Source of the DNA: Methylophilus aquaticus | Lineage (GTDB): Bacteria; Pseudomonadota; Gammaproteobacteria; Burkholderiales; Methylophilaceae | Reading direction: 5' to 3' | Assembly: GCF_030769565.1 (NCBI RefSeq) | Contig: NZ_JAVCAP010000009.1 | Coordinates: 33,302-97,301 of the forward strand | Length of the DNA: 64,000 bases | In this document: in pieces, positions 4,892 through 44,155 of the stretch | Numbering within the stretch: position 1 is the stretch's first letter | Layout: each line of letters begins with the position of its first letter | Position numbers and translations under genes: made by a program | The notes under the pieces: generated by a model | What the model was told of the DNA's origin: nothing | What the model saw: the letters and a program-made list of their open reading frames with translations, nothing else | Databases searched by the model: none

Positions 4892-5779
4892 TCAAGTGTG
4901 CGTCTGTCGGGTACTCAATACGCCAAAGCCAATGATCAGCAACATGCCTGCGACTTCGTGCATGCTGAGTGTTTCTCCCCAGCCGATCACCCCTATCAAG
5001 GTCGCAAAGACGATTGTGCTGTAAGCCAGGCTGGCAACCGTCAGTGTATGGCCAGTGCGGTAGGCGCGGGTCATCGCAAGTTGGCTGCAGGTTGCCGATA
5101 ACCCTAATCCTGATAATAAGGGAATATCCTGCCAGCGGAGCGGGGTGATGCGGTCGAACAACATCCAGAGTCCGCTTGTCACCGTGCACAGCAGCGTGAA
5201 ATAAAATACCGTGCGCCAGTCTGGCTCGCCCTGCATGCCGAGTTGTTTCACATGCACATAGGCCAATGCGGCACCCAGACCCGAGAGCAGGCCCAAGCTG
5301 CCTGCCAGCAGCTGGTCGCGGTAGAAAACGGGTTGTAATAGCAGGCAGACCCCGATAAAGCCACCGACCACACAAATATTGAATATCTGTCGCTGCCTGC
5401 CATGTGCGCGATGCTCGCCTCTGAGCAGCCACGGTGAAAGCAATGCCAGAAACATTGGGGAAGTGTAGTTGAGGGTAATGGCAGTCGCCAGCGGCAGGTG
5501 CGCGATGGCGTAAAAAAATAACAGTAGTGCGCCAAATCCTACACCCGCTCTGCGCATTTGCATGTCTAGCAGCGGCGTTTGCAGTGGTTTGCCTTGCCAC
5601 CAGATCAGGGCCGCGATACTGATAAAACCAAAGGCTGATCGGTAAAACACCAGTTCGCCAGTGGTAAAGCGTTGCGCGCCGGCTTTTACACAAGCGCCCA
5701 TGATGGCAAACCCCACACCGGCCAGCAGCATCCAATAGCTGCCGAGCTGCCAGTGCGTTGGATTGAAGCGTCTAGGCAA
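4892..5779 (-). CDS. DMT-superfamily (EamA) transporter
   Basis: A 295-residue inner-membrane protein with two tandem EamA repeats and about ten hydrophobic segments, as in drug/metabolite exporters of the RhaT/YdcZ/EamA group. Substrate unknown. The open frame begins at a TTG (5779) overlapping the stop of the Rieske oxygenase by 8 bases, which suggests translational coupling; no good ribosome site is visible, and the in-frame ATG before MLLAGVGFAIMGACV (~5731) is an alternative that would still precede the first helix. Being coupled to an oxygenase, it may export or import that enzyme's substrate or product; this is inference from position only. Confidence 0.85.
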   Translation of the reverse strand: MPRRFNPTHWQLGSYWMLLAGVGFAIMGACVKAGAQRFTTGELVFYRSAFGFISIAALIWWQGKPLQTPLLDMQMRRAGVGFGALLLFFYAIAHLPLATAITLNYTSPMFLALLSPWLLRGEHRAHGRQRQIFNICVVGGFIGVCLLLQPVFYRDQLLAGSLGLLSGLGAALAYVHVKQLGMQGEPDWRTVFYFTLLCTVTSGLWMLFDRITPLRWQDIPLLSGLGLSATCSQLAMTRAYRTGHTLTVASLAYSTIVFATLIGVIGWGETLSMHEVAGMLLIIGFGVLSTRQTHT

Positions 5780-6938
5780 AGGGGTAGTTTACCTGGCGTG
5801 GCATCTCGCCAGAGAGGTGCGATTGCATTTGCGCGCGATACCAGCGATGGAAATGTTCCAGCCCGGTTTCCATCGGGTGTTGATAAGGACCACGCTCGTC
5901 CTTGCCCTGTGCATATAATCCTTTACGGCCATCATGCATACGCTGGCAAACCTCTTTGTCTTCGACCGCAGTTTCAAAATAGGCAGCTTGCTGCGCCTTG
6001 ATATATGCACGCTCAAACAGGGCAATGTCTTCCGGGTAGTAAAACTCAACCACGTTTTTGCAGGTTTCCACTCCTGTCGGAATAATGTGTGAAACTACCA
6101 GCACGTTGGGATACCACTCAATCATCAGGAAAGGGTAAAGCACAAACCAGATGGCGCCATATTTGGGGGCAGTGCCTTGCTGGTAATGACCGACGGCCTC
6201 TTGCCAGGCTTTGTAAACAGGTGAGAAGCTGTATTCCGCCAACGGTTTATAGCCCACAGTCTGGACACTGTAATGCTCACCGAACTCCCAGTTCAGTTCC
6301 CCACAATCAACAAACTGGTTTAAGCCGGGGTGGAAAGGGCCGACATGGTAGTCTTCCAGATACACTTCAATAAAAGTTTTCCAGTTGAAGTCATAGTGGT
6401 CAATCATCGCCGAGTCAAAATGATAGCCGGTAAAATCAAAGTCCTGTTTGCATCCTAACTGCTTCAGCAAGCCTGCAATCTCCAGTCCTTTTTGTTTTGC
6501 GGGTGACGATTTAAACAGCAAACCCTGCCATTCTGTGAGCGCCTTGTTTTCCAGATGCAGGCAAGGGTTTTTCTCAAAGTGCGGCGCCCCGAGCAGTTGA
6601 CCGTTCAAGTCGTAAGTCCAGCGGTGCAAGGGACAGACAATATGGTGTGTATTGCCTTGGCCGTTGAGCATGACCGCCTGACGATGACGACAAATATTGC
6701 TGATCAGTTTCGGCTGCCCTTGCTGGTTAACCAGCGCGAGCGCGTCATGCATCCAGTCCAGTGTATAAAAGTCGCCTGCTTGCGGGATCATGCAACGGTG
6801 ACCCATGTACTGGGGCAGATGCCGGAACAGATGGGCTTGTTCCAGTGCATAAATTTCCGGGTTCAGATACCAGTCAACTGGTAGCTGTGCAACTTCAGTT
6901 GTCTGCGGTTCTTTATTTAAAGCGGTGACAGAGCCCAT
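5772..6938 (-). CDS. Rieske-type ring-hydroxylating oxygenase alpha subunit homologue
   Basis: A 388-residue protein with an N-terminal Rieske [2Fe-2S] domain, ligands C83-x-H85 (NICRHRQAVML) and C102-x2-H105 (VCPLHRWTYD), and a C-terminal non-haem iron domain containing EDYHVGPFHPGLNQF, where H198 and H203 would bind the mononuclear iron. This is the alpha-subunit architecture of Rieske oxygenases, which hydroxylate or demethylate aromatic, choline-like or other small molecules with electrons from a reductase. No reductase or ferredoxin gene is nearby, so the electron donor must be elsewhere, and the substrate cannot be inferred. ATG start at 6938. The gene is divergent from transaldolase across a 280-base promoter region and overlaps the downstream DMT gene. 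Confidence 0.9.
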   Translation of the reverse strand: MGSVTALNKEPQTTEVAQLPVDWYLNPEIYALEQAHLFRHLPQYMGHRCMIPQAGDFYTLDWMHDALALVNQQGQPKLISNICRHRQAVMLNGQGNTHHIVCPLHRWTYDLNGQLLGAPHFEKNPCLHLENKALTEWQGLLFKSSPAKQKGLEIAGLLKQLGCKQDFDFTGYHFDSAMIDHYDFNWKTFIEVYLEDYHVGPFHPGLNQFVDCGELNWEFGEHYSVQTVGYKPLAEYSFSPVYKAWQEAVGHYQQGTAPKYGAIWFVLYPFLMIEWYPNVLVVSHIIPTGVETCKNVVEFYYPEDIALFERAYIKAQQAAYFETAVEDKEVCQRMHDGRKGLYAQGKDERGPYQHPMETGLEHFHRWYRAQMQSHLSGEMPRQVNYPFA

Positions 6939-7218: not shown

Positions 7219-8172
7219 ATGGCAAATTTATTAGATCAGTTGAAAGCAATGACGACCATCGTGGCTGACACTGGTGACGTTGAAGCAATCAAAAGTGTTA
7301 AACCTGTGGATGCAACCACAAACCCGTCTCTGGTATTGAAGGCTAGCCAAATCCCAGAATACGCACCGTTGATTGAAACTGCCATTGCTTATGCAAAAGC
7401 ACAAGGTGGTTCTAAAGAGCAACAAATTGAAAATGCAGCCGACAAGCTGGCTGTGTTGATTGGCGCTGAAATCACTAAAGTGGTTCCAGGCCGTATTTCT
7501 ACAGAAGTAGATGCGCGTCTGTCTTTCAATATCGACGCTATGGTAGCTAAAGGCCGTAAACTGATCAGCCTGTATCAAGAGTCTGGCATCAGCAAAGACC
7601 GCGTGCTGATCAAGCTGGCTTCTACCTGGGAAGGTATCAAAGCTGGCGAAATTCTGGAAAAAGAAGGCGTTCAGTGTAATCTGACTTTGTTGTTTGGTTT
7701 CGGTCAGGCACGTGCTTGTGCTGAAGCTGGCGTATTCCTGATTTCTCCATTCGTTGGCCGTATCCTTGACTGGTACAAAGCGAAAAACCCAGGCACTGAG
7801 TACACACAAGAAACAGATCCAGGTGTGGTTTCTGTGCGCGCAATCTACCAATACTACAAAGAGCACGGTTACAAAACGGTTGTGATGGGTGCTTCTTTCC
7901 GAAACACAGGTGAGCTGATTGCCTTGGCTGGTTGCGATCGTTTGACCGTTTCTCCCAACTTGCTGCAAGATCTGGCTGCCACAGAAGGCACTTTGGTTCA
8001 AGTGTTGAAAGATGGCGGAAAAACCAAAGAAGTGCCAGCTAAATTGACAGAAGAGCAATTCCGTTTTGAACTGAACCAAGATCCAATGGCCACTGAGAAA
8101 TTGGCTGAAGGTATCCGTGGTTTCGTGGCTGACCAGAACAAGCTGGAAGCTGCTTTAGCCGCAAAACTGTAA
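7219..8172 (+). CDS. tal: Transaldolase
   Basis: A 317-residue class I transaldolase (TalB type). It moves a dihydroxyacetone unit between sugar phosphates (sedoheptulose 7-phosphate + glyceraldehyde 3-phosphate to erythrose 4-phosphate + fructose 6-phosphate), here in the rearrangement branch of the RuMP cycle that regenerates ribulose 5-phosphate. The Schiff-base lysine is K132 ([12 protein letters not shown]), preceded by DATTNPS at 31-37 and [15 protein letters not shown] at ~89-103. Length is standard. ATG with a strong AGGAG. Regular, strongly biased codon use and the position directly before hps suggest high expression. A perfect 10-bp hairpin terminator follows. Confidence 0.97.
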
Positions 8173-8190
8173 TATCGCAGTGCGATAATG

Positions 8191-8223
8191 CAAACGGGCA
8201 GTGACCTGCCCGTTTGGTTTTTA
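8191..8223 (+). terminator. Intrinsic terminator after transaldolase
   Basis: Perfect 10-bp stem caaacgggca/tgcccgtttg (8191-8200 and 8207-8216) with a 6-base loop, followed by a T-rich tail. It separates tal from hps, so hps needs its own promoter. Confidence 0.9.
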
Positions 8224-8249
8224 AGTCAGGCATAAATTGGCCTGCAACA

Positions 8250-8278
8250 TTGACTTATTTTGGCTGTGAGCTTACTAT
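8250..8278 (+). promoter_or_regulatory. Sigma70-like promoter for hps
   Basis: TTGACT (8250-8255), 17-base spacer, TACTAT (8273-8278): a good sigma70 promoter between the tal terminator and the hps start, giving a leader of about 65 bases. Confidence 0.7.
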
Positions 8279-8348
8279 GAGCGACCAGCTTGAATTGGTA
8301 GTACGCTAGCAATAGCATTTGAAACTTTATAAATTTTTGGAGAAAAAC

Positions 8349-8981
8349 ATGGCATTAACACAAATGGCATTAGACTCATTGGATTTCGACGCAACTATCG
8401 CTTTGGCAGAAAAAGTTGCTCCACACGTTGATATCTTGGAAATCGGTACACCTTGCATCAAGCACAACGGTATCAAACTGCTGGAAACGCTGCGCGCTAA
8501 ATTCCCAAAAAACAAAATCCTGGTTGACCTGAAAACTATGGACGCTGGTGAGTACGAGTCTGAGCCATTCTACAAAGCAGGTGCTGACATCTGCGTAGTA
8601 TTGGGCGTATCCGATATCGGTACTATCAAAGGCGTAATCAAAGCGGCTAACAAATACGGCAAAAAAGCGCAAGTTGACCTGATCAGCGTTGAAGATAAAG
8701 TGGCTAAGACTAAAGAAGTTGCTGCTGCTGGTGCTCACATCATCGGTATCCACACTGGTTTGGACCAACAAGCTGCTGGTCAAACACCATTTGCTGACCT
8801 GGCTGCTGTTGCAGGTTTGAACCTGGGTGTTGAAATCTCAGTTGCTGGTGGTGTTAAAGCCGCTACTGCTGCTCAAGTACGTGATGCTGGCGCGACTATC
8901 ATCGTTGCTGGTGCTGCTATCTACGGTGCTGCTGACCCAGCTGCTGCTGCTGCAGAAATCACTGCTATCGCTCACGCTTAA
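8349..8981 (+). CDS. hps: 3-hexulose-6-phosphate synthase
   Basis: A 210-residue enzyme of the OMP decarboxylase/KGPDC/HPS superfamily. It condenses formaldehyde with ribulose 5-phosphate to D-arabino-3-hexulose 6-phosphate, the formaldehyde-fixing step of the RuMP cycle. The (beta/alpha)8 barrel is complete; the Mg/phosphate-binding motif is DLKTMD (D60, K62, D65), with E31 in ILEIGTP and the phosphate loop VAGGVKA near the C-terminus. The start is ATG 8349 (MALTQMALDS), 5 bases after GGAGA; the frame stays open to 8319 but that extension is not family-like. Codon use is extremely even (GCT, GGT, CTG), as in very highly expressed genes. Own promoter upstream and a terminator downstream. Confidence 0.97.
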   Translation: MALTQMALDSLDFDATIALAEKVAPHVDILEIGTPCIKHNGIKLLETLRAKFPKNKILVDLKTMDAGEYESEPFYKAGADICVVLGVSDIGTIKGVIKAANKYGKKAQVDLISVEDKVAKTKEVAAAGAHIIGIHTGLDQQAAGQTPFADLAAVAGLNLGVEISVAGGVKAATAAQVRDAGATIIVAGAAIYGAADPAAAAAEITAIAHA

Positions 8982-9022
8982 TTCATTTAAGCATCAATAA
9001 GCAATTATTGATTAGCGATCAT

Positions 9023-9055
9023 AAAAACCCGACTCAGCAATGTGTCGGGTTTTTT
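9023..9055 (+). terminator. Intrinsic terminator between hps and phi
   Basis: An 11-bp stem aaaaacccgac/gtcgggttttt (9023-9033 and 9044-9054) with a 10-base loop, ending in T's. It lies between hps and phi, so phi is probably transcribed by read-through at a lower level than hps. Confidence 0.9.
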
Positions 9056-9088
9056 ATTCATTATTTTTTGTTTACACAGGATTGAAAA

Positions 9089-9625
9089 ATGGATCATCAA
9101 CAATTTATTCTGGACAACTTGAAGCGTATTCTGGACGTAACCGACAAATCAAAAGCAGCCGAATTATTGAAGCTGGTTGAAGAAGCGGGTTCTACCTTTA
9201 TCGGTGGTGCTGGCAGATCATTGCTGGTTTCACGTTTTTTTGCCATGCGTCTGGTGCACTCCGGTTACAGCGTTTACATGATCGGCGAAGTGGTCACGCC
9301 AGCCATCAAAAAAGGTGACTTGCTGGTACTGGTTTCAGGTTCTGGCGGCACTGCAACCTTGTTGCCATTTGTGAAAAAAGCCAAAGAAGTTGGCGCTAAA
9401 CTGGTCGTGATCTCCATGAAAAAATCTTCTGCGATGGCAGATGTGGCAGATCTGGTTGTTCAAATCGGTCAAGATGACAGCTTCCCGCTGGTTAAAGGCA
9501 TGCCGATGGGTGGTCAGTTTGAGTTGTCCACACTGGTATTTCTGGAAGGCGCGATTTCTGAATTGATTCACGCGAAAGGCCTGACTGAAGAAGGGATGCG
9601 CGCACTGCACGCAAACCTGGAGTAA
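9089..9625 (+). CDS. phi: 6-phospho-3-hexuloisomerase
   Basis: A 178-residue SIS-domain isomerase of the RuMP cycle; it converts hexulose 6-phosphate to fructose 6-phosphate. Motifs: GGAGRSLLVSRFFAMRLVHS (~38-57), VSGSGGTATLLPFVKKAK (~79-96) and a conserved C-terminal helix with FELSTLVFLEGAISELI. Length is normal. ATG preceded by AGGA at ~9 bases. It follows hps in the usual order but across a terminator, and no strong promoter of its own is apparent. Confidence 0.96.
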   Translation: MDHQQFILDNLKRILDVTDKSKAAELLKLVEEAGSTFIGGAGRSLLVSRFFAMRLVHSGYSVYMIGEVVTPAIKKGDLLVLVSGSGGTATLLPFVKKAKEVGAKLVVISMKKSSAMADVADLVVQIGQDDSFPLVKGMPMGGQFELSTLVFLEGAISELIHAKGLTEEGMRALHANLE

Positions 9626-9681
9626 GCATTGATTGCGGCCCAGCTTTTTGTTTGCGTAATCGCTGCGCGTAATGTGTGTTT

Positions 9682-9710
9682 AAAAACCGGCCATTGGCCG
9701 GTTTTTTTTA
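9682..9710. terminator. Bidirectional terminator between phi and the HisA-like gene
   Basis: Stem aaaaaccggcca/ttggccggtttttt at 9682-9708 with A- and T-runs on its two sides. It overlaps the stop codon of the minus-strand HisA-like gene (9708-9710), so convergent transcripts share it. Confidence 0.9.
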
Positions 9711-10415
9711 TGGCTGGAATGTAGTTATTTGCCGGGAGTTCAGTTGTTTCTGGTGTAATGCGCTGGCAATCAGCACACCATACGCACCTTGTGCTGCCAA
9801 TGCTTGAATATCCTCCATATGCCGCACGCCGCCAGCAGCATAAAATTGCTGCTTTGGCGTGTGTTGCCGCATATGCATTAACCTGTCGAGGTCAGGGCCC
9901 TGCTGTGCACCTACCTTGGGTAAACTCATCAGAATAGTGGGTTGCGACCATAGGGCTGAATTTTCGAGTAAGCCCGCAGGTCCTTTAAATCCCTCACTGA
10001 AAAAATCCAGCGATAGCCTGCTCTCGGGCGCTTGTTGATATAACTGTTGGTAACTTTCAATGCTGCCCAATACTTCGCTGGCTAATATAGGCGTGACACC
10101 GATTCCTTGCCAGCGCTGCAAGTCCTGCGAGGTGCAGATGCCTGCATCTACCCACCAAGTAATCTGCGGGAAGCTCTGCATGGCACGTTGTATGAGCGCA
10201 CGATGGTCAGCCAGCTGCGTGTCTTTGGTGATGGCATTTAAATCAGCAATATACACACAGTCGAACGGATAAACTTGTAAAATAGCATCTACGACATCGA
10301 TCAAATGATGGCTGCTTGTCAGTTGGGATTGTATCGGGCGGTAATGCTGCCGCTGGCCTCTGACGGCTTGAACGACATGGCCATGCATCAGGTCGATGAC
10401 GGGAATAATATGCAA
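9708..10415 (-). CDS. HisA/HisF-related protein of the H4MPT/methylofuran cofactor gene set
   Basis: A 235-residue (beta/alpha)8-barrel protein related to HisA (start MHIIPVIDLMHGHVVQAVRG; C-terminal phosphate-binding AAGGVRHMEDIQAL). The match is to the divergent HisA/HisF family found in methanogens and in bacteria with tetrahydromethanopterin-linked C1 metabolism, not to canonical histidine biosynthesis: there are no his genes around it and all neighbours across the start are C1-cofactor genes. Exact reaction unknown. The start is TTG 10415, fixed by the family N-terminus. It is head-to-head with the ATP-grasp gene: the two 5' ends overlap by 6 bases. The stop lies inside a bidirectional terminator. 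Confidence 0.85.
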   Translation of the reverse strand: MHIIPVIDLMHGHVVQAVRGQRQHYRPIQSQLTSSHHLIDVVDAILQVYPFDCVYIADLNAITKDTQLADHRALIQRAMQSFPQITWWVDAGICTSQDLQRWQGIGVTPILASEVLGSIESYQQLYQQAPESRLSLDFFSEGFKGPAGLLENSALWSQPTILMSLPKVGAQQGPDLDRLMHMRQHTPKQQFYAAGGVRHMEDIQALAAQGAYGVLIASALHQKQLNSRQITTFQP

Positions 10416-11495
10416 AATAATGCTCGCTTAAAAATCTGGGTGTGTGAATTTATCAGTGCCGGTGGTCTGGCATCACAAGCATTGCCTGCCAGCTTGTTGC
10501 AGGAGGGGGTGCTGATGCGCGATGCTTTGCTCGCAGACCTCTCGGCTTTGGCTGTGGATTGTATCACCAGCCATGATGTGCGCGTTGCATCACCGGTGCA
10601 GGCCGGTGTCAACAGTCAGCCGATTGGTGACCAAGATGCGCCATGGCAGGTCTGGCAGCAACAGTTACAGGATGCCGAGATTACTGCCGTGTGGGTGATC
10701 GCGCCTGAGACTGATGGTATCCTGCTTCGCCTGCAGATGCTGGTTGCGGAGGCAGGGAAGCGCTGGATAGGATGTCATGCCGAAGCGATTGCGGTTGCCA
10801 CCAGCAAAGCGCGCATGGCCGAGCGGTGTGCACAACAAGGTATCGCAGTGATTCCCCATCAATATTTACAAAAGTGGACGGCCAGTGCACAGTTGCCTGA
10901 AGCCCTGGCCTGGGTAGTCAAGCCCGATGATGGCGCCGGTTGCGAGTATAGTTATTATGTCGAGCTTCGTCAGCAAGTCTCTGCACTCAAAAAGTACTTC
11001 ATGGAACACCTGCCCGAACGTTACCCGGCCATGCTGATACAGCCTTACATTGCGGGCCAGGCATTGAGCATGTCTGTCATCGCCACTACCCATGCTGTTA
11101 AAGTCATTGCGGCACATACCCAGCAGATTGCAGTGATTGATGGCCAATTGCGCTTTCAGGGCGCTGGTGTTCATCATGCCAGCCAACATTTGTCAGCCAT
11201 GCAAGCCCTGGCTGGAAGCATACATCGCGCGATACCGGGCCTGATCGGCTACTGGGGCGCTGATATGATTCTGACCGAAGAGAGTCGCCTGGTGTTGGTT
11301 GAGATTAATCCGCGCCTGACCACACCTTATATCGCATTGTCTGGAGTGCTTGACTACAATCCGGCAGGAGCTATTCTGTCTGCGGTGTTTGATCAGCAAC
11401 TGCCTTCGTCAGTGGCTAACGATGGCTGTACCTTGCAGCTGCTCCCTGTGACGATAACGAAAATGCATGCATCCAATGTGGTGTGTCATGGCTAG
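10410..11495 (+). CDS. ATP-grasp ligase, MfnD-like (C1-cofactor biosynthesis)
   Basis: A 361-residue ATP-grasp protein. N-terminal lobe beginning LKIWVCEFISAGGL, ATP-binding centre (WVVKPDDGAGCEYSYY ~169-184) and metal-binding LVLVEINPRLTTPYIALSG near the C-terminus. It resembles archaeal MfnD (tyramine-glutamate ligase of methanofuran synthesis) and the ATP-grasp protein of methylotroph C1-cofactor clusters; bacterial methylofuran carries tyrosine in place of tyramine, so the substrate may differ. Start ATG 10410 with CGGGA upstream; the frame extends to 10305 but family similarity begins here. It overlaps the next gene by 8 bases, marking an operon of four coupled genes. Confidence 0.82.
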   Translation: MQNNARLKIWVCEFISAGGLASQALPASLLQEGVLMRDALLADLSALAVDCITSHDVRVASPVQAGVNSQPIGDQDAPWQVWQQQLQDAEITAVWVIAPETDGILLRLQMLVAEAGKRWIGCHAEAIAVATSKARMAERCAQQGIAVIPHQYLQKWTASAQLPEALAWVVKPDDGAGCEYSYYVELRQQVSALKKYFMEHLPERYPAMLIQPYIAGQALSMSVIATTHAVKVIAAHTQQIAVIDGQLRFQGAGVHHASQHLSAMQALAGSIHRAIPGLIGYWGADMILTEESRLVLVEINPRLTTPYIALSGVLDYNPAGAILSAVFDQQLPSSVANDGCTLQLLPVTITKMHASNVVCHG

Positions 11496-12534
11496 TCCGG
11501 TGATTGGCTGGGATATCGGCGGCGCGCATGTTAAAGCCGTGATGCTAAATGCGCAGGGCGCTGTCTGCAAGGCTATGCAACATCCTTGCGCATTATGGAA
11601 AGGTCTGCATCTGCTTGATGAGGCTGTATTACACATCCTGCAAGCGTGGCAGTTGCGCGCAGAAGACTGTGCGCATGCCGTCACTATGACGGGTGAACTG
11701 GTCGATTTATTTGCCTGCCGCGAAGAGGGGGTACTGGCAATTGCTGACAGCGTGCTGCGACTGTTACCACGGGCCTCCTTTTATGCAGCCAGTGCGGAAC
11801 ATGCGGAATTTATTGTGGATGTGCGTGGTCATGCGGTGCACGTGGCCTCCATGAACTGGCATGCATCGGCGCAGTCCATTGCGCAGATGTCATCACACCA
11901 AACTTTGATCGTCGTCGATATTGGATCCACGACAACAGATGTGACATGGTGTGAGGGCAATCAGGTGCAGACTTCCGGCTGGACGGATGCAGCGCGGATG
12001 AAGTTTGGCGGCTTGCTGTATACAGGCGTTGTACGAACGCCGCTGATGGCATTGGGTCCGTGGCTGAATCGACAGGGGAAACTACAACACGTTGCTGCCG
12101 AGTATTTTGCAACCACAGCTGATGTTTACCGTGTGCTTGGCGAGTTACCACCCTCCGATGATATGGCAGACACCGCTGATGGCCAAGATAAGTCAGCACT
12201 GGCTACCATGCGACGTTTGGCCAGGATGGTGGGTCACGATGTAGACGATGCGACTGCGCCAGTATGGCAAACACTGGCGCAAGACTTTAAACAACAACAA
12301 TTGGATATTATGGAGCGTACATTACAACAAACGCTTGTCATGCATGCACAGAGCCCTGTGTTGGTCGGGTTGGGCGCCGGGGCCTTTTTGCTTCCTGCAT
12401 TGGCCAAGCGGCTGGATCTGGTGTATCAGCCAGTGCAAGACATGATCACCGCAGAAACCACGGCATTACAGCATCTGGCTGGCGTTTGTTTTCCGGCATA
12501 TGCAGTGTCGAGATTATGGCAAACATGGCATTGA
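11488..12534 (+). CDS. H4MPT-linked C1-transfer protein of the hydantoinase fold (MfnF-like)
   Basis: A 348-residue protein of the hydantoinase/oxoprolinase-like family tied to tetrahydromethanopterin C1 pathways; the archaeal member MfnF joins the furan and glutamyl-tyramine parts of methanofuran. Visible actin-like ATPase-type motifs: GWDIGGAHVKAVML at the start, VVDIGSTTTDVTW in the middle, then LLYTGVVRTPL and EYFATTADVYRVLGEL, and a C-terminal GLGAGAFLLPALAKRL. Start ATG 11488 (MASPVIGWDIGG), overlapping the ATP-grasp stop by 8 bases (ATGGCTAG); the upstream ATG at 11467 is less likely. Function in the bacterium is inferred from family and neighbours. Confidence 0.85.
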   Translation: MASPVIGWDIGGAHVKAVMLNAQGAVCKAMQHPCALWKGLHLLDEAVLHILQAWQLRAEDCAHAVTMTGELVDLFACREEGVLAIADSVLRLLPRASFYAASAEHAEFIVDVRGHAVHVASMNWHASAQSIAQMSSHQTLIVVDIGSTTTDVTWCEGNQVQTSGWTDAARMKFGGLLYTGVVRTPLMALGPWLNRQGKLQHVAAEYFATTADVYRVLGELPPSDDMADTADGQDKSALATMRRLARMVGHDVDDATAPVWQTLAQDFKQQQLDIMERTLQQTLVMHAQSPVLVGLGAGAFLLPALAKRLDLVYQPVQDMITAETTALQHLAGVCFPAYAVSRLWQTWH

Positions 12535-13988
12535 TTCAACTTGTATTACCTTATGCCGAAGGTGCGTACTGGCTGGCAAAATTACGGCAATCGAGTTGGC
12601 CGATGTTGCTGGAAAGTGGGCAGGTCGGCCAGCCGTTGCAAGCGCAAACCCCGCTCTCTGTTGACGAAGAAATCAGTCTCGGTGCGCGTTTTGATATTGT
12701 GGTTGCTGATCCTGTGGTCAAGCTGATACATGCTCAGCAACACACCACGGTGGTGACGCAGACCGAGACCACGGTAACATCGCAAGATCCTTTTGCTGCC
12801 ATTCAGGCGTGGTTGCAGCCAAATACAGTGCCTAACAGCGTTTTGAGGGAAGCCGGCATTCCTTTTGCCGGCGGCGCCTTGGGCTATTTTGCATATGATC
12901 TGGGGCGCAGTATAGAGCGTTTACCCTGTCTGGCAGCACAAGAGACCCCCGTTCCTGACATGCTGGTGGGTATTTACGATTGGGCCATTATTGTTGACCA
13001 CCACCAGCAGCGTGCCCAACTGGTGTCATTGGCCCGTTTCAGGACGGTCGCCGACATTCACAGCCTGCATCAGCAACTGCTGGCAACAGCGACACCCGAG
13101 GCGAGAGAACAGTTTGCCGTGAACGGCACGCTGCAGCATAATCTGAGTCCGGCTGGATATGCGCAGGCATTTGCCCGTGTCAAAGACTACATCACGGCGG
13201 GCGATTGCTACCAGATCAATCTGGCACAGCGCCTGAGCGTGCCGGTATCGGGCGACAGCTGGCAGGCCTATGAAGTGTTTCGCCAGTTCAGTCGGGCACC
13301 ATTTATGGCTTATTTACAGGTGGATGATGGGCAGGAACAGTCGTTTGAAATATTGTCCATGTCGCCAGAACGTTTTTTGCAGGTACGCGAAGGCGTAGTG
13401 GAGACCCGCCCAATCAAAGGTACGCGTCCTCGTCATGTGGATCCTGTGCAAGATGCACTGGTGGCTGAAAGCTTGGCCGCCAGCAGCAAGGACCGTGCAG
13501 AAAATCTGATGATTGTTGATCTGTTACGCAATGACATTGGCAAGGTCTGTGAGATTGGGTCAGTCAAGGTGGATGCCTTGTTCCGCCTGCAGCGCTTTAC
13601 CAATGTACATCACCTGGTCAGCATTGTCCGGGGACGGCTGGCCGCTGGCTATCATGCGCTGGATTTATTGCGTGGCTGCTTCCCAGGCGGCTCGATTACG
13701 GGTGCACCCAAGTTACGCGCCATGGAAATTATTGAGGCGCTGGAGCCGCATCGTCGTCATGTGTATTGTGGCAGCATAGGCTATATCGGTTTTGATGGTA
13801 GCATGGATACCAATATTGCCATTCGGACTGCCGTCATTTATCGCCAACAGATGACTTTCTATGCCGGTGGTGGCGTAGTTGCTGACTCCGATTGTGACAA
13901 GGAGTATCAGGAAACGCTGGACAAGGCCTCTCAATTCATACGCCTGGTACAGCACTTTCAAACGCAATCTCACGACAGGGGATCATAA
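12525..13988 (+). CDS. pabB: Aminodeoxychorismate synthase component I
   Basis: A chorismate-binding enzyme of about 487 residues; with a PabA-type glutaminase it turns chorismate into 4-amino-4-deoxychorismate, precursor of p-aminobenzoate for folate and tetrahydromethanopterin. Catalytic core motifs: RPIKGTRPRHVDP, NLMIVDLLRNDIGKVCEIGSV, GGSITGAPKLRAMEIIEALEP and YCGSIGYIGFDG. PIKG favours PabB over TrpE. ATG 12525 overlaps the previous stop by 10 bases and has a GAG about 12 bases upstream; ATG 12516 is equally open but leaves no room for a ribosome site. Its place inside a methylofuran/H4MPT cluster links pABA supply to C1-cofactor synthesis. The PabC partner is at 43.3 kb; no pabA is seen here. 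Confidence 0.92.
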   Translation: MALIQLVLPYAEGAYWLAKLRQSSWPMLLESGQVGQPLQAQTPLSVDEEISLGARFDIVVADPVVKLIHAQQHTTVVTQTETTVTSQDPFAAIQAWLQPNTVPNSVLREAGIPFAGGALGYFAYDLGRSIERLPCLAAQETPVPDMLVGIYDWAIIVDHHQQRAQLVSLARFRTVADIHSLHQQLLATATPEAREQFAVNGTLQHNLSPAGYAQAFARVKDYITAGDCYQINLAQRLSVPVSGDSWQAYEVFRQFSRAPFMAYLQVDDGQEQSFEILSMSPERFLQVREGVVETRPIKGTRPRHVDPVQDALVAESLAASSKDRAENLMIVDLLRNDIGKVCEIGSVKVDALFRLQRFTNVHHLVSIVRGRLAAGYHALDLLRGCFPGGSITGAPKLRAMEIIEALEPHRRHVYCGSIGYIGFDGSMDTNIAIRTAVIYRQQMTFYAGGGVVADSDCDKEYQETLDKASQFIRLVQHFQTQSHDRGS

Positions 13989-13990
13989 CA

Positions 13991-14647
13991 ATGTGGGTCA
14001 TCAAGCTGGGGGGCAGTGTGACGCGACACAGCAGTTTGACGCAATGGTTGCAACTGGTTGCCCGCTGGGGAGATGGTAAAGTTATTGTGGTGCCAGGGGG
14101 CGGGTTGTATGCAGATGCAGTGCGTCATTTTCAACAGATGCGGACAGCGTTTGCCGACGGCCAACTTGATGAAGAGCACGCACATGCCTTGGCAATTTAT
14201 GCCATGGATCAGATGGCGCGAAGCTTTGTGGCTATGGTGCCCGAACTCGTGTTGGTGCGCAACCCGCTGGAAATTGCCGAACGTGGCTGGCAACATCGGG
14301 GGTTGGTGTGGTTGCCAAGTGAAATGGCACTGAATCCAGATGAGTGGGCGCAAAGCGGCTTGCCAGAAAGCTGGGAGGTAACTTCAGATAGCCTTGCTGC
14401 TTGGTTGGCATTAAAGTTGGAAGCAGAACAATTGATTCTGATTAAGTCCGATGCGCGGATTTTAGAGCATCAAGCTGGTTATCGCTTGTCGCAATTACAA
14501 TCGCAAGGCATTGTTGACCATGGGATATCCCGTGTCTTGAATGGGGTGCCTTACAGTAGTTGGGTGATGCATCAAACACGGTTCGATCTTTTTGAACACG
14601 GGTTTATCTCTGACCGTCTTTCAGGACGTATAGAAGACAACCATTAA
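13991..14647 (+). CDS. Amino-acid-kinase-fold protein (MfnE-like, C1-cofactor biosynthesis)
   Basis: A 218-residue amino-acid kinase-family protein: WVIKLGGSV (2-10), VVPGGGLYADAV (~31-42) and a nucleotide-binding C-terminal half (ILIKSDARIL, VLNGVPYSSWVMH). Archaeal MfnE, a kinase of this fold, phosphorylates the aminomethylfuran precursor of methanofuran, and homologues occur in methylotroph C1-cofactor clusters. ATG two bases after the pabB stop with AGGGGA at good spacing, so it is the last gene of the operon. It ends facing the convergent RND permease gene with only 22 bases between. The kinase substrate is inference. Confidence 0.8.
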   Translation: MWVIKLGGSVTRHSSLTQWLQLVARWGDGKVIVVPGGGLYADAVRHFQQMRTAFADGQLDEEHAHALAIYAMDQMARSFVAMVPELVLVRNPLEIAERGWQHRGLVWLPSEMALNPDEWAQSGLPESWEVTSDSLAAWLALKLEAEQLILIKSDARILEHQAGYRLSQLQSQGIVDHGISRVLNGVPYSSWVMHQTRFDLFEHGFISDRLSGRIEDNH

Positions 14648-14669
14648 ATCTGGAAATCTGCGGAAATGG

Positions 14670-17600
14670 CTAAGAGGCTTCTGTTTTCTCAAACTTTCCA
14701 AAATGCAGCATAATCGTTGGCAAAATTAATAAGTTTAATATGGTTGAAGAAATTAGACCTCCAACGATAATGGTTGCCATTGGCCCTTCAATCTCTCGAC
14801 CAGGTTCGCCGCTTCCCAATGCTAATGGTAATAACCCAAGTGCCGTGACCAGTGCTGTCATCAGAACAGATGGCAGACGTTCTGAGGCTCCTCGAATACA
14901 GGTGTCCAGGTTCCAGTGACAGCCTTCTGCATCAATCAGGTGCTGAAAATGAGAAACCATCATGATCGAGTTACGCAGTGTAATTCCGAACAAGGTAACA
15001 AAACCGACCAACGAGCCAACAGAAAGCCAGCCACCAGTAAAAAATGCTGCAATGACACCACCAATTAAAGCAAAGGGCAAGTTGGCAAATGTGAGCAGCA
15101 AATTGCGCAAACGACCTAATGCAATATACAGCATCAGGAAAATGGCCACGCCTGCCACCACCGCATGTACTATCAAATCTTCACGGGATTGGGTACTTGC
15201 TTCGGCTTCACCGCTAAACTCTATGTAGTTGCCTGTGTGCAGCTTTATTTCGCGATACAAAGTTTTTTTAATTTCCTCTATCGCCAATGTCTGATCTCTG
15301 CCACCGATATTAGCCGTCACCGTTTGAATGCGCTTTGCGCCCGCATGCAATATTTTTGAGCGACCGTTTTCCTGCCCGATGTAAGCGACATCAGACAATT
15401 TGAGCATCTGCCCTTCGGCGTTGAAAATAGGGATGTTGCGCATGTCACCAATGTCGTCACGTGTGTCGTCATTCAATAATACACTCAAGCCAATTGAGCG
15501 GTTGCCTATGTAAATATGGTTGACAGGTACACCCTCATAACAGGCGCGAATTGTATCCAGTACATCCATGGGGTGCAGCCCCCACAGAGCCAGTTTTTCC
15601 ATTTTCAGGCGGATCACAATTTCCGGAGTACCTGGCGGAGATTGCACCATGACATCTTTGATGCCTTTGATACCTTGTATGGTATGGGCAATTCTTTGCG
15701 CATCGCGATCCAGTGCATCGAGATCCTGCCCATAAATATTAATCACCAATCCGGCGGCATAGCCTGAAATCGTTTCCTCTATCCGTTCAGTCAGGAAGGT
15801 GTTGATGGCAAAGTTGGCACCTACAAACCCTGTTTCAGCCTTGTTGTCATCGTCATCATCGATCAGTTCGCCTGAGAGTTCTTCACGAATATTGTTTAAA
15901 ATACGGTCTTGTTCTTTGCCGGATCGGGTGCCAATTTCAATTTCAAACTCACTGTAGTGAGTGCCAAAGGTATCGGCAGCATTGGGCGCGCGACCCACCC
16001 ATTGTGTGACTGTTTTGACCCCGGGTATTTCAGCAAGTATCTTGGTCACAGTACTGCCTAGTCGCAAGGACTCGGTTTCCGACGTACCGGGAACTGTCGT
16101 CATATGCATAATAAAATGACCTTCATGCAAGGCTGGAATAAATTGACTTCTAAATAGAGGGAGCACACCCAATCCCAGCGCGATACTGATAAAGCTTGCG
16201 ACCAGAATGATTTTAGAATGCTTTTCAATGCGATGCAGCCCTGCAATATAACGTTGCTTGAGCCAATCAATGACGGGTGCTTCCTGATTAGTTAACTGAG
16301 CACGCCCCAGCATGAGGTAACACAGGGCCGGTGTAAGAGTCAGCGCAACCGCCAGCGACGCCAGAGTAGCGGTGATATAAGCGTATCCCAATGGCGCAAA
16401 CAGTTTTCCCGCCACCCCAGATAAAGTCAATAACGGTAAAAAGACCAGTGCCACAATGATGGTGGCATAAACAACAGAGCTACGTACTTCCATGGAAGCT
16501 TCGAATACGACTTGTGAGATTGGGCGTGATGTAACCAGCATACGGTTTTCGCGCAAACGCCGGAAAATATTTTCAGTATCAATAATCGCGTCATCCACTA
16601 CCTCACCTAATGCAATTGCCAGTCCGCCCAGTACCATAATATTCAGGCCTATCCCAAACTGGTGCAGTACCATAATGGCCGTGAGCAGTGACAATGGAAT
16701 CGCTGTTGCAGAAATGACCGCTGTGCGCAGATTAAATAAAAATACAAATAATACCGAGATGACCAATACCGAGCCGATCAGAATGTCGGTTTGCACCCCA
16801 TCAATCGCGGTTTCAATGAAGTTGGCAGGCCTGAACAAGCCCTCATGCAAGGTCACTTGCTGTTGTGTCAGGCTAGGTTTGATTGAAGTCAGTGCCTGTT
16901 CAAGTGCTTTGGTAACGGCATGGGTGTTTGCACCAAATTGCCCTTGTACCGACAAGTATATACCCTGCTTACCGTCGATTGCGGCGGCACTGATGGAAGG
17001 CGCAGCCCCTTCCACCACTTGCGCTACATCTGCGATGCGAATAGTGCGTCCCAGTTTTCGCACCAGCGTGACATTGGCAAGCTGCTGCGGGCTGCTGGTT
17101 TGCCCTTGGCTGTTTAAAATAATGCGCTGGTTATCGTTTTGAATATATCCTGCGCCACTTACGCCTGTGGCGCGTCTGGCTGCGTTGACCACATCCTGCA
17201 CATTGAGTTGATACAGCATCAGTTTGCGCGGGTCAATTTTGATCTGGAACTGGCGGACCTCGCCGCCGAACACATTGACATCTGCCACGCCGGGGATGGC
17301 CAACAGGTGTGGTGTGATATGCCAGTCGACAATGGTGCGCAGTTGCATCAGGCTAAGTGTTTTTGATGTTACTCCCAAGCCCAGCACTGTGCTGGCCGAA
17401 GAGGTGAGCGGGGTGATGTTGGGGGTGATGCCGACAGGCAATAGATTGGCAACAGTGTTCAGATGTTCTGCAATGATTTGCCGGTTTCTGTATACGTCAG
17501 TCTTGTCATTAAAAATAACCGTGATGATAGACAGCCCCGGAATGGATTGCGAACGCAAGCTTTTGATGCCAATCGCACCGGTAATGCTGTTTTCAATCGG

Positions 17601-17801
17601 CTGGGTGATGAGTTTTTCCACCAAGCTTGCCGAGAGTCCAGGTGATTCGGTTTGAATCACCACTTGTGCTGGCGAAAACTCCGGGAACACATCAAGGTTT
17701 GCTTGTGTCAGGCTATATCCGCCATACAACACGACCAACAATGCCAAGCCGATGATGACACCATAAAAGCGAATCGCAAACTTTACGAGGGAGGTCATCA
17801 T
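14670..17801 (-). CDS. RND efflux permease, CzcA/CusA-like (HME-related)
   Basis: A 1043-residue inner-membrane RND pump with twelve predicted helices and two large periplasmic loops, the drug/metal:proton antiporter of a tripartite efflux system. N-terminus SLVKFAIRFYGVIIGLALLV; early DVFPEFSPAQVVIQTESPGLS is typical of the CzcA/CusA group. The central helix carries GEVVDDAIIDTENIFRRLRE where proton-relay acidic residues are expected (VDDAIID). The metal-relay methionines of CusA are not obvious, so substrate (metal ion or organic solute) is open. It is third in a minus-strand operon: outer-membrane protein, adaptor, pump. The pump gene starts 29 bases after the adaptor stop. Confidence 0.92.
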   Translation of the reverse strand: MMTSLVKFAIRFYGVIIGLALLVVLYGGYSLTQANLDVFPEFSPAQVVIQTESPGLSASLVEKLITQPIENSITGAIGIKSLRSQSIPGLSIITVIFNDKTDVYRNRQIIAEHLNTVANLLPVGITPNITPLTSSASTVLGLGVTSKTLSLMQLRTIVDWHITPHLLAIPGVADVNVFGGEVRQFQIKIDPRKLMLYQLNVQDVVNAARRATGVSGAGYIQNDNQRIILNSQGQTSSPQQLANVTLVRKLGRTIRIADVAQVVEGAAPSISAAAIDGKQGIYLSVQGQFGANTHAVTKALEQALTSIKPSLTQQQVTLHEGLFRPANFIETAIDGVQTDILIGSVLVISVLFVFLFNLRTAVISATAIPLSLLTAIMVLHQFGIGLNIMVLGGLAIALGEVVDDAIIDTENIFRRLRENRMLVTSRPISQVVFEASMEVRSSVVYATIIVALVFLPLLTLSGVAGKLFAPLGYAYITATLASLAVALTLTPALCYLMLGRAQLTNQEAPVIDWLKQRYIAGLHRIEKHSKIILVASFISIALGLGVLPLFRSQFIPALHEGHFIMHMTTVPGTSETESLRLGSTVTKILAEIPGVKTVTQWVGRAPNAADTFGTHYSEFEIEIGTRSGKEQDRILNNIREELSGELIDDDDDNKAETGFVGANFAINTFLTERIEETISGYAAGLVINIYGQDLDALDRDAQRIAHTIQGIKGIKDVMVQSPPGTPEIVIRLKMEKLALWGLHPMDVLDTIRACYEGVPVNHIYIGNRSIGLSVLLNDDTRDDIGDMRNIPIFNAEGQMLKLSDVAYIGQENGRSKILHAGAKRIQTVTANIGGRDQTLAIEEIKKTLYREIKLHTGNYIEFSGEAEASTQSREDLIVHAVVAGVAIFLMLYIALGRLRNLLLTFANLPFALIGGVIAAFFTGGWLSVGSLVGFVTLFGITLRNSIMMVSHFQHLIDAEGCHWNLDTCIRGASERLPSVLMTALVTALGLLPLALGSGEPGREIEGPMATIIVGGLISSTILNLLILPTIMLHFGKFEKTEAS

Positions 17802-17830
17802 CGGGCTATCGTCATCAGCATACGGATACG

Positions 17831-18895
17831 TTAATCGTCGTTTTCATTTTTAATCAAAAACTTGAACTCTTCAGAAAGTAGAAGCTGAGCACCACGTGTG
17901 ACCACTTCTGCACCCGCTGGCAAGCTGGTATCAAACCAGCCATCATCCAGTTCGGTCTCCATCGACACTGGTTTACGTAAAAAGGTATCAGGTTTGGTTT
18001 TGACGTAAACCCAGGCCAAGCCTGCATGCCATACGATGGCTTGGTTGGGAACCATGACACCATGCAGCATGGCCGATGAAGACTGTGCCGGAACCACATT
18101 AACTCGCATGCCGATACGCAAATAGTCAGCTGGAGCGCTGTAAAAATAGGTTTTTCCTATATTGCTGATGTCGCTTTGTATAGATTGAGAAACATATTCT
18201 GCCTGTATTGGTTTGACATGGTCATGGATAGGCGTGATATTGATATATGAGTGCGGGTCAGGGTCTTTAAAGTTGAGTGGAAAGCTCACTTGCACCAGTA
18301 CTTTCTTTTGTAAAAGAAGGTCATGCAAGGCATTTGTGGTCGACTGCTGCGTCACGAGTGCTGCTAACGGTTTGCCCCATTGTGCAATGATGGTTTCTCT
18401 TAATGCACTCAGTTGGCTTTGGGTGGCGCTGATTTGTGTCTGGTCATTAATGACCAGTGCCTGCGCTTCCTGCATGACTTTGTCAGATACGTTTTTATCA
18501 TCCTCATTCAGCTGTTTGTAACGCTGGTACTGTAACTGATGGTTTGGTAATACACTCTCGGCGACTGCCAATTGTGTTTTTAACAGCTGGTATTGGCTGT
18601 TGTAATCAATCAGGGTTTGTATGGAAACCACAGTGCCCAGAGCCTTGATATTGCCATGATAGGCATATGCTTGCAGAGGATGTACGCTGATGCCACTGTT
18701 GTTTTGTGCTGCCTGGGAAAGTTGCACCATTTGCAATCCATTTTGTTGCACAATATGTGAGAATCCTGAGATGTCTTCATCATCCGAGGCCTGCAATGAC
18801 TCATACTCGTCTTTACCGTAGAAAATAACGATCCAGAACAGACTGATAATGAGTACAGTCTGAGCCCCAATAATCCACAGTGCTTTTTTACTCAT
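17831..18895 (-). CDS. RND efflux periplasmic adaptor (membrane fusion protein)
   Basis: A 354-residue adaptor of the HlyD/CusB type with an N-terminal membrane anchor (ALWIIGAQTVLIISLFWIVIFYG, about 5-27). The middle contains a coiled-coil hairpin (LLKTQLAVAESVL ... YKQLNEDDKNVSDKVMQEAQALV) flanked by lipoyl and beta-barrel segments; the C-terminus has the usual barrel and membrane-proximal strands (ANVVP-like RVNVVPAQSS, VYVKTKPDTFLRKPV). It bridges the pump and the outer-membrane channel. No His/Met-rich metal-binding tail is seen. The ATG overlaps the upstream gene's stop by 4 bases, so the two are translationally coupled. Confidence 0.9.
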   Translation of the reverse strand: MSKKALWIIGAQTVLIISLFWIVIFYGKDEYESLQASDDEDISGFSHIVQQNGLQMVQLSQAAQNNSGISVHPLQAYAYHGNIKALGTVVSIQTLIDYNSQYQLLKTQLAVAESVLPNHQLQYQRYKQLNEDDKNVSDKVMQEAQALVINDQTQISATQSQLSALRETIIAQWGKPLAALVTQQSTTNALHDLLLQKKVLVQVSFPLNFKDPDPHSYINITPIHDHVKPIQAEYVSQSIQSDISNIGKTYFYSAPADYLRIGMRVNVVPAQSSSAMLHGVMVPNQAIVWHAGLAWVYVKTKPDTFLRKPVSMETELDDGWFDTSLPAGAEVVTRGAQLLLSEEFKFLIKNENDD

Positions 18896-20328: not shown

Positions 20329-20372
20329 CTGCAAATCACAGGAAAATCAAATCAACATCACTAGCGTTGTGA

Positions 20373-43306: not shown

Positions 43307-44155
43307 ATGACGACTGTGCGCTATTGTGTGAATGGCAAGCTGGTTGCCGGGGTGTCCCCGACTAACCGAGGGTTTGCTTATGGTGACGGGATTTTTCGTA
43401 CCATGCGGTTGCTGGATGGCGAGCTGGTGGATTGGCCGTTGCATTATCAAACGCTGGTGGCGGATTGCAGCAAAATCCAGATGGTGTGTCCTTCTGCCGA
43501 GTTTCTGATGCAGGAGTTCAAGTATTTTATGGCTTCCGCTGAGGCCAATACGCGGTTGGCGAGTGTGATTAAAATCATCATCACACGGGGCGAGGGTGCA
43601 CGTGGGTACGCACCCCCGGCTATTTGTGAGCCGACGCGAGTGTTTGTGCAATCGCCCATGCCGGTTTATCCATCTGAGATTTATACGCAAGGCGTTGCCT
43701 TGTATACCTGCCAAACGCGTTTGGCGTATCAGCCTGTGCTGGCGGGCATCAAGCATTTAAACCGTTTGGAAAATGTGCTGGCACGGGCCGAGTTAAAAGA
43801 CCCGCGCTTTTTTGATGGTTTGCTGCTGGATTATGACAACCAGGTGATTGAGGCGGTGAGTGGCAATCTGTTTATCCGCAAAGCGGATACGGTGTTTACG
43901 CCTGCATTGGACAGTTGCGGTGTGGCGGGCGTGATGCGCCAGAAAATACTGGATTGGTATAAAACGCAAGGCCAGGCGGTGATTGTGGCGCCGATAGACA
44001 AGGCTGCGCTGCTGGATGCCGATGCGGTGGTGGTGGTAAACAGCGTGTACGGTATATTGCAGGTCAGCCAGATTGATGAACAACGGTTGGCGACGGATGA
44101 CTGGGCCGGGCAACTCAGGCTGCGTTTGAATTACGGGGTTTCTGCAGATGCATAG
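43307..44155 (+). CDS. pabC: Aminodeoxychorismate lyase
   Basis: A 282-residue PLP enzyme of the branched-chain aminotransferase fold. It releases pyruvate from 4-amino-4-deoxychorismate to give p-aminobenzoate, needed for folate and tetrahydromethanopterin. PLP-binding K149 (LAGIKHLNRLE), phosphate-binding loop in AVSGNLFI and GVAGVMRQKILD; N-terminal GFAYGDGIFRTMR is typical. ATG start; it begins the pabC-mltG-tmk-holB-pilZ-tatD gene block. PabB is 30 kb away in the C1-cofactor operon. Confidence 0.94.
   Translation: MTTVRYCVNGKLVAGVSPTNRGFAYGDGIFRTMRLLDGELVDWPLHYQTLVADCSKIQMVCPSAEFLMQEFKYFMASAEANTRLASVIKIIITRGEGARGYAPPAICEPTRVFVQSPMPVYPSEIYTQGVALYTCQTRLAYQPVLAGIKHLNRLENVLARAELKDPRFFDGLLLDYDNQVIEAVSGNLFIRKADTVFTPALDSCGVAGVMRQKILDWYKTQGQAVIVAPIDKAALLDADAVVVVNSVYGILQVSQIDEQRLATDDWAGQLRLRLNYGVSADA

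What the first reader, a model, noticed from the sequence alone, without database searches (positions are those of the whole stretch)
9708..14647. Archaeal-type C1-cofactor cluster, probably for a methylofuran-like cofactor, directly behind the RuMP genes
Seen: HisA-like protein (minus), then plus-strand ATP-grasp, hydantoinase-fold, pabB and amino-acid kinase genes with overlaps or tiny gaps. Known: MfnD (ATP-grasp), MfnE (amino-acid kinase fold) and MfnF (hydantoinase-type fold) make archaeal methanofuran; bacterial methylofuran is a related compound with tyrosine and polyglutamate. Inference: this operon makes methylofuran and/or the pABA part of H4MPT. The bacterial route and the roles of the HisA-like protein and ATP-grasp ligase are not settled, so the cluster could hold an unknown pathway step.
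Basis: partly seen in the sequence, partly recalled or inferred. Interest (0 to 1): 0.7.

Follow-up and report, generated by a model that had tools for sequence, protein, structure and literature searches.

The report
Methylofuran cofactor gene cluster in Methylophilus
This stretch of a bacterium that is likely a Methylophilus (methanol eaters) carries an already described set of genes that likely builds methylofuran, a cofactor for formaldehyde oxidation; one of them, orf17, has a likely counterpart that a related bacterium needs to make the cofactor, but its chemical job was unassigned in the papers we could search.

Summary
At 9708-14647 lie a HisA-fold gene (orf17, minus) and, head-to-head with it, a tight plus-strand run: MfnD-like ATP-grasp (orf1), MfnF-like protein (orf9; TIGR03123 above cut-off), pabB, MfnE-like kinase. 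The cluster is not new: Beck et al. 2014 list it for Methylophilaceae with its link to hps-hpi-tal; Hemmann et al. 2021 tie orf9, orf21, orf22 and orf17 to methylofuran. The open point is Orf17, needed for methylofuran in Methylorubrum extorquens, step unknown. Orf17 and MfnF occur in exactly the same 14 of 299 phylum genomes and share 105 of 107 in 150 family genomes. Orf17 keeps HisA's two aspartates (94 of 94) but has Asp90 (93 of 94) for a HisA glycine, and Glu114 (94 of 94). I infer a furan-branch step between MfnB and MfnE. A second gap: no PF00282 (MfnA-type) decarboxylase above cut-off in any of 22 sampled genomes of this genus, although M. methylotrophus reportedly makes tyramine-type methylofuran.

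The parts
9708..10415 (-). orf17: HisA-fold TIM barrel, predicted early step of methylofuran core synthesis (step unassigned)
10410..11495 (+). mfnD-like ATP-grasp ligase (orf1 type), predicted tyramine--glutamate ligase
   Evidence: NF040722 MfnD best NCBIfam match, 72.6 bits, below cut-off 400; PF02655 and PF18301; scanned from 10407, three bases before the likely start
11488..12534 (+). mfnF-like protein (Orf9 type), predicted to join aminomethylfuran diphosphate to the tyramine unit
   Evidence: TIGR03123 301.4 bits, above cut-off 244.1; NF040623 MfnF 133.8 bits, below cut-off 520; PDB 3c0b/3cet 2.4e-24
12516..13988 (+). pabB, aminodeoxychorismate synthase component I (pABA for H4MPT and folate, predicted)
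   Evidence: TIGR00553 363 bits, above cut-off 328.4
13991..14647 (+). mfnE-like amino-acid-kinase-fold protein (Orf21 type), predicted furan phosphate kinase
   Evidence: NF040622 MfnE best NCBIfam match, 71.1 bits, below cut-off 300; PDB 7qrh 6.1e-11
10410..10415 (.). 6-bp overlap of the divergent start codons of orf17 (TTG, minus) and mfnD (ATG, plus)
   Evidence: sequence; relatives
7219..9625 (+). neighbouring RuMP genes: transaldolase 7219-8172, hps 8319-8981, phi 9089-9625
   Evidence: TIGR00874, TIGR03128, TIGR03127 above cut-offs
43307..44155 (+). pabC, aminodeoxychorismate lyase, the other pABA step, elsewhere in the window
   Evidence: TIGR03461 259.7 bits, above cut-off 176.85

Best explanation
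The cluster encodes relatives of the archaeal methanofuran enzymes MfnD, MfnF and MfnE together with PabB and the HisA-fold protein Orf17, and it likely makes the aminomethylfuran-tyramine-glutamate core of methylofuran plus the pABA of tetrahydromethanopterin. Predicted route: MfnB (contig C15) makes the furan aldehyde phosphate 4-HFC-P from two glyceraldehyde 3-phosphates; an amine is put on to give F1-P; the MfnE-like kinase makes F1-PP; the MfnD-like ligase joins tyramine to glutamate; the MfnF-like protein joins the two halves; MyfA- and MyfB-like ligases (contig C25) then add glutamates. Orf17 is inferred to work early in the furan branch, most likely on the phosphate-bearing furan between MfnB and MfnE, with HisA-type acid-base chemistry from its two conserved aspartates. 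Shown here: gene families, the gene set, co-occurrence, residue conservation. Inferred: every reaction in this organism, and Orf17's step (about 0.4 for the furan branch by catalysis).
For: Families. Own genome: FTR/fhcD, fhcB-A-D-C (A, D, C above cut-off), afp-like, DHPS-like (orf20), DUF447 (orf19) and mfnB, a row of GHMP (mptG-like), mtdB-like, ATP-grasp (MyfA-like), mch, RimK-type (MyfB-like) and CitG-like genes (names by family and order), 3 Fae-family genes. Own MfnB has the three lysine motifs (D..K, V/I-K, DT..K) of its relatives, so ring closure need not be Orf17's job (their catalytic role partly, partly recalled). Orf17 and MfnF: same 14 of 299 phylum genomes, own genome included, 105 of 107 in 150 family genomes. 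MfnB in those 14 plus G191. Literature: delta-orf17 M. extorquens lacks methylofuran, is restored by the gene, still has methenyl-dH4MPT and showed no methylofuran-Glu intermediates; MfnC unassigned (PMC8141765). HisA's aspartates are kept 94/94, while Asp90 (93/94) and Glu114 (94/94) differ from HisA. Own HisA and a HisF-like gene lie in a his operon elsewhere.
Against: MfnD-, MfnE- and MfnF-like proteins are all below the archaeal equivalog cut-offs, and own FhcB is below its cut-off (205.2 against 327.8). No reaction has been shown for this organism. Archaeal MfnB makes 4-HFC-P in vitro and MfnA-F are said to account for the archaeal core without MJ_0703, so no step is plainly vacant for Orf17 other than the unidentified bacterial MfnC. 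No PF00282 (MfnA-type) gene was found in the genome, so the tyramine source is missing. MfnB is within 10 kb of Orf17 in only 8 of 80 loci. G443 and G380 break the Orf17-MfnF pairing (80% and 81% complete). That the window's Orf17 is the orthologue of M. extorquens Orf17 is inferred; the two were not compared directly.
Confidence: 0.82

Rival explanations
1. Orf17 acts in the tyrosine/tyramine-glutamate branch, beside MfnD, not in the furan branch.
For: Orf17 is divergent from mfnD in all 69 loci with an MfnD hit, with aligned ends at most 40 bp apart in 63.
Against: Eleven of the 80 loci have no MfnD hit in the DNA held (some contigs are short). M. extorquens has no MfnD homologue and uses tyrosine, yet needs orf17 (PMC8141765). 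The conserved phosphate-type loops fit a phosphorylated substrate, which this branch lacks (inference).
Confidence: 0.15
2. Orf17 is a non-catalytic partner or chaperone that makes slow MfnB or the transaminase work at low temperature.
For: In PMC11365854 the M. jannaschii MfnB has no kinetic value at 25-45 C and the other MfnB there turns over 0.9-2.7 times a minute at 25-45 C (passages).
Against: The two HisA-type aspartates are invariant in 94 of 94, which speaks for catalysis.
Confidence: 0.15
3. Orf17 works in tetrahydromethanopterin synthesis, as once proposed for its relative MJ_0703.
For: HisA fold and company of H4MPT genes; a CitG-like gene lies about 1.5 kb from orf17 in G187.
Against: Methenyl-dH4MPT is present in delta-orf17 M. 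extorquens (PMC8141765).
Confidence: 0.04
4. The cluster is unrelated amino-acid metabolism (second HisA, generic kinase, hydantoinase, ATP-grasp).
For: The Pfam domains alone are generic.
Against: NCBIfam best matches, the gene inventory and the co-occurrence with MfnF and MfnB; a proper HisA exists elsewhere, TIGR00007 253.1 bits.
Confidence: 0.02

Closest known systems
H4MPT/methylofuran gene islands of Methylophilaceae (orf17, orf1, orf9, pabB with hps-HPI-tal; Beck et al. 2014, PMC4109929; Hemmann et al. 2021, PMC8141765)
   Same: Same genes, same link to the RuMP genes; a second hps copy in the his operon, also as described.
   Different: Nothing essential seen. In this genome the mptG-like to CitG-like row lies on another contig (C25), while in the Methylotenera locus L050 such a row lies next to tal.
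Archaeal methanofuran pathway (MfnA-F)
   Same: Relatives of MfnB, MfnD, MfnE and MfnF are present.
   Different: MfnD, E and F relatives are below the archaeal equivalog cut-offs, no PF00282 protein was found, MfnC is not identified, and bacterial genes orf17, myfA and myfB are added.
HisA (ProFAR isomerase)
   Different: About 20% identity; a HisA loop Gly is Asp90, and Glu114, Arg22, Trp156 and His221 are Orf17-specific against 10 HisA; the genome has its own HisA.

Membership tests
TIGR03123 / bacterial Orf9 (H4MPT-linked C1 protein) | score above curated cut-off 244.1 bits | tested here: met
   301.4 bits
Archaeal MfnF equivalog NF040623 | score above curated cut-off 520 bits | tested here: not met
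   133.8 bits
Archaeal MfnD equivalog NF040722 | score above curated cut-off 400 bits | tested here: not met
   72.6 bits, best NCBIfam match
Archaeal MfnE equivalog NF040622 | score above curated cut-off 300 bits | tested here: not met
   71.1 bits, best NCBIfam match
PabB TIGR00553 | score above curated cut-off 328.4 bits | tested here: met
   363 bits
HisA TIGR00007 | score above curated cut-off 228.95 bits | tested here: not met
   Orf17 57.9 bits; the genome's other HisA 253.1 bits
TIGR00734 hisAF_rel | score above curated cut-off 179.85 bits | tested here: not met
   82.5 bits; over the cut-off in 1 of 14 control genomes, which one the tool does not say
PF00977 His_biosynth | gathering score 23.6 bits | tested here: met
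   85.8 bits; fold match
Bacterial Orf17 group | single gene that occurs with the MfnF-type gene | tested here: met
   same 14 of 299 genomes; 105 of 107 in 150 (G335 shows two fragments, G443 and G380 discordant)
Bacterial Orf17 group | deletion abolishes methylofuran | not testable with these tools
   reported for M. extorquens only (PMC8141765); not compared directly with that protein here
H4MPT/methylofuran pathway in this genome | fhc, mch, fae and mfnB families present | tested here: met
   (FhcB below its cut-off)
MfnA-type tyrosine decarboxylase | PF00282 protein in the genome | tested here: not met
   no match in the own genome; 0 of 22 sampled genomes of the genus above cut-off, one weak match at 18.6 bits

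The most novel reading that the evidence does not exclude
Orf17 is the missing bacterial MfnC: a PLP-free, HisA-fold amination enzyme. The furan aldehyde phosphate (4-HFC-P), itself an aromatic aldehyde with a phosphate arm like PLP, would form an imine with an amino acid or ammonia, and Orf17's aspartate pair would shift the proton as HisA does in its Amadori reaction, giving F1-P. One phosphate site holds the substrate's phosphate; Asp90 and Glu114, at the end where HisA binds its second phosphate, would face the amine. This fills the one vacant pathway step with the one methylofuran-essential gene that has no role.
Probability: 0.08. Interest if true: 0.75.

Novelty: already known. Interest (0 to 1): 0.33.

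Why it matters
Methylofuran carries the formyl group in the formaldehyde oxidation route of most methylotrophic bacteria. The cluster itself is known, but two steps of its making are not: what Orf17 does, and where Methylophilus gets tyramine. The data here narrow both to testable claims: Orf17 tracks the MfnF/MfnB furan route rather than MfnD or H4MPT, with named residues to mutate, and the tyramine gap covers all 22 sampled genomes of the genus and 67 of 106 MfnF-bearing genomes of the family sample.

Tried and rejected
Rejected: Orf17 as a second HisA (own HisA found in a his operon); Orf17 as furan-ring maker (own MfnB has the lysine motifs); Orf17 as H4MPT enzyme (published mutant); the cluster as unrelated metabolism.

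Led nowhere: Orf17 in viral contigs, 3 pattern matches and no relative. PDB by sequence for Orf17: 30 matches, all HisA, PriA or HisF, 5.1e-05 or weaker. Promoter scan 9500-14800: 11 sites against 4.8 expected (sd 1.9); the nearest upstream of orf17 is a 9-of-12 match at 10973-10945 (minus), none is upstream of mfnD on the plus strand. Relatives of Orf17 are on 33 plasmid records, Azospirillum to Paraburkholderia, not pursued. My first ORF caller missed Orf17 in 13 of 80 loci, 9 of the 13 with GC of 0.64 or more; counts are therefore from tblastn. Nine weak hits of the Orf17 profile (44.6-52.9 bits) were set aside as HisA and used as the HisA set with the own HisA; the weakest counted Orf17 has 163.4 bits. 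Fisher values ignore relatedness of genomes, so I quote counts.

Full report
Observation. The five genes are at 9708-14647 as described. Family scans give PF00977 for the minus-strand gene and ATP-grasp_3, Hydantoinase_A, chorismate-binding and AA_kinase for the plus-strand run. In NCBIfam the ATP-grasp protein is nearest MfnD and the kinase nearest MfnE, both below cut-off; the hydantoinase-fold protein passes TIGR03123 but not the archaeal MfnF equivalog; the fourth passes TIGR00553 (PabB). The frames overlap by 8 and 19 bp and then leave a 2-bp gap, if the likely ATG starts 11488, 12516 and 13991 are right (read).

Organism. The closest named relatives of Orf17 are Methylophilus. Locus L045, Methylophilus sp. 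42, has the contig position of G408, which the genome tool calls the same genus as the window; I infer genus Methylophilus, and hence phylum Pseudomonadota.

Rest of the pathway. The same genome carries fhcB-A-D-C (FhcB below its cut-off, 205.2 against 327.8), afp-like, DHPS-like (orf20), DUF447 (orf19) and mfnB genes in a row, a row of GHMP (mptG-like), Mpt_N (mtdB-like), ATP-grasp (MyfA-like), mch, RimK-type (MyfB-like) and CitG-like genes (the names in brackets rest on family and order) and three Fae-family genes.

Known before. Beck et al. 2014 list for Methylophilaceae 'fhcABCD, mptG, mtdB, orfY, mch, orf5,7,17,1,9, pabB, orf22, 19, 20, afp', say that the clustering is strictly conserved between close species, and place one hps copy in the H4MPT cluster, linked to HPI and transaldolase, and the other in the his cluster (PMC4109929, passages). 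Both placements hold here. Hemmann et al. 2021 name Orf22, Orf21 and Orf9 as homologs of MfnB, MfnE and MfnF and orf1 (Mfla_1650) as the MfnD-like gene, and report that M. extorquens without orf17 makes no methylofuran, keeps methenyl-dH4MPT and shows no methylofuran-Glu intermediates; they leave Orf17 out of the pathway and MfnC unassigned (PMC8141765). Searches of the held library (one search listed 20 of 28) showed, by listing, no later paper that assigns Orf17.

Orf17 and its partners. With a profile from Methylophilaceae, 14 of 299 phylum genomes (own included) score 163.4 bits or more and nine more 44.6-52.9 bits, which I take for HisA. TIGR03123 rings in exactly the same 14 of 299, 9 of 154 genera. 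MfnB (PF04476) rings in those 14 and one more, G191, whose MfnB has Thr where the other 14 aligned have the first motif's Lys, and which has no Orf17 or MfnF match. In 150 genomes of the family Orf17 and MfnF are each in 106, sharing 105; the exceptions are G443 (an Orf17 fragment) and G380, 80% and 81% complete; the listed genomes of genera g167 and g169, 1.2-1.4 Mb, lack both, and 24 further genomes without a match are not listed in either call. In the 80 loci read, the counts over 45 bits in the DNA held (up to 10 kb each side; several contigs are short) are MfnF 72, MfnD 67, PabB 59, MfnE 57, Phi 46, Hps 44, Tal 39, MfnB 8.

Orf17 itself. The AlphaFold model has pLDDT 93.4 and pTM 0.91; the fold matches shown are HisA, PriA and HisF, natural or engineered. 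In 94 Orf17 sequences against 10 HisA, Asp8 and Asp137 are invariant in both groups; they correspond, by alignment and recall, to the aspartates mutated in the D7N and D127V HisA structures listed. A HisA loop Gly (10 of 10) is Asp90 in 93 of 94 Orf17; Glu114 is in 94 of 94; Arg22 94, Trp156 93, His221 93 and Arg198 89 of 94; the later Gly-Gly is kept in both groups. I read this as a barrel that keeps HisA's acid-base pair and one phosphate site and has an acidic pocket where the second phosphate sat. F1-P, with a phosphate at one end and an amine at the other, fits; this is inference only, and no ligand was docked.

Where Orf17 may act. MfnB makes 4-HFC-P in vitro (PMC11365854 passages) and the own MfnB has the lysine motifs, so ring formation is not vacant. 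M. extorquens needs Orf17 but has no MfnD or MfnA homologue, so Orf17 is not tied to those. What is left in the furan branch is the amination (MfnC) and its surroundings. HisF-type families that install nitrogen exist by name (WbuZ, AglZ/HisF2 appear as below-cut-off matches of the own HisA; their chemistry is recalled). I give about 0.4 to a catalytic furan-branch step and 0.08 to Orf17 being the amination enzyme itself. Against the latter: M. jannaschii has a homologue of Orf17 and, from recall, its own MfnC, and no HisA-fold transaminase is known to me.

Tyramine. M. methylotrophus is reported to make tyramine-type methylofuran with no MfnA found (PMC8141765). PF00282 gave no match here and is above cut-off in 0 of 22 genomes of the genus (one weak match) and 44 of 150 of the family; 67 of 106 MfnF-bearing genomes lack it (some are incomplete). 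Either another decarboxylase serves, or those lineages differ in core.

Verdict. What remains of interest is the unassigned Orf17 step and the missing tyramine source.

Noticed in passing
10410-10415: orf17 and mfnD run head-to-head with start codons overlapping by 6 bp (TTG on minus, ATG on plus). All 69 loci with an MfnD hit are divergent, 63 with aligned ends at most 40 bp apart and 18 overlapping; the seven closest loci L043-L049 use GTG or TTG for orf17. Each gene's 5' signals would then lie inside the other gene.
   Followed up: partly
G000:C28 (L153:3371-4222): A second hps gene (79% identical over 219 residues) sits inside the his operon; such a copy is already described for Methylophilaceae.
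   Followed up: yes
family sample: PF00282 decarboxylases are not above cut-off in any of 22 genomes of the window's genus, nor in 67 of 106 MfnF-bearing family genomes, although M. methylotrophus is reported to make tyramine-type methylofuran.
   Followed up: partly
L129 / L150 (G191): One genome has an MfnB-type protein with Thr in place of the first motif's Lys and no MfnF or Orf17 match: perhaps a reused or decaying furan synthase.
   Followed up: partly
14670-20334: Three genes that look like an RND efflux set (only the adaptor was family-tested, below cut-off) lie beside mfnE on the opposite strand; tblastn finds them in 35, 29 and 24 of the 80 loci.
   Followed up: partly
L159:11060-11944 and L151:6366-7235: A CitG-like gene (PF01874; probably orf7) recurs in 48 of 80 loci and lies about 1.5 kb from orf17 in G187; its reaction is unassigned to my knowledge.
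   Followed up: no
5772-6938: A Rieske-oxygenase-like gene with only weak family matches (best glycine betaine monooxygenase, 82.6 against cut-off 670).
   Followed up: no
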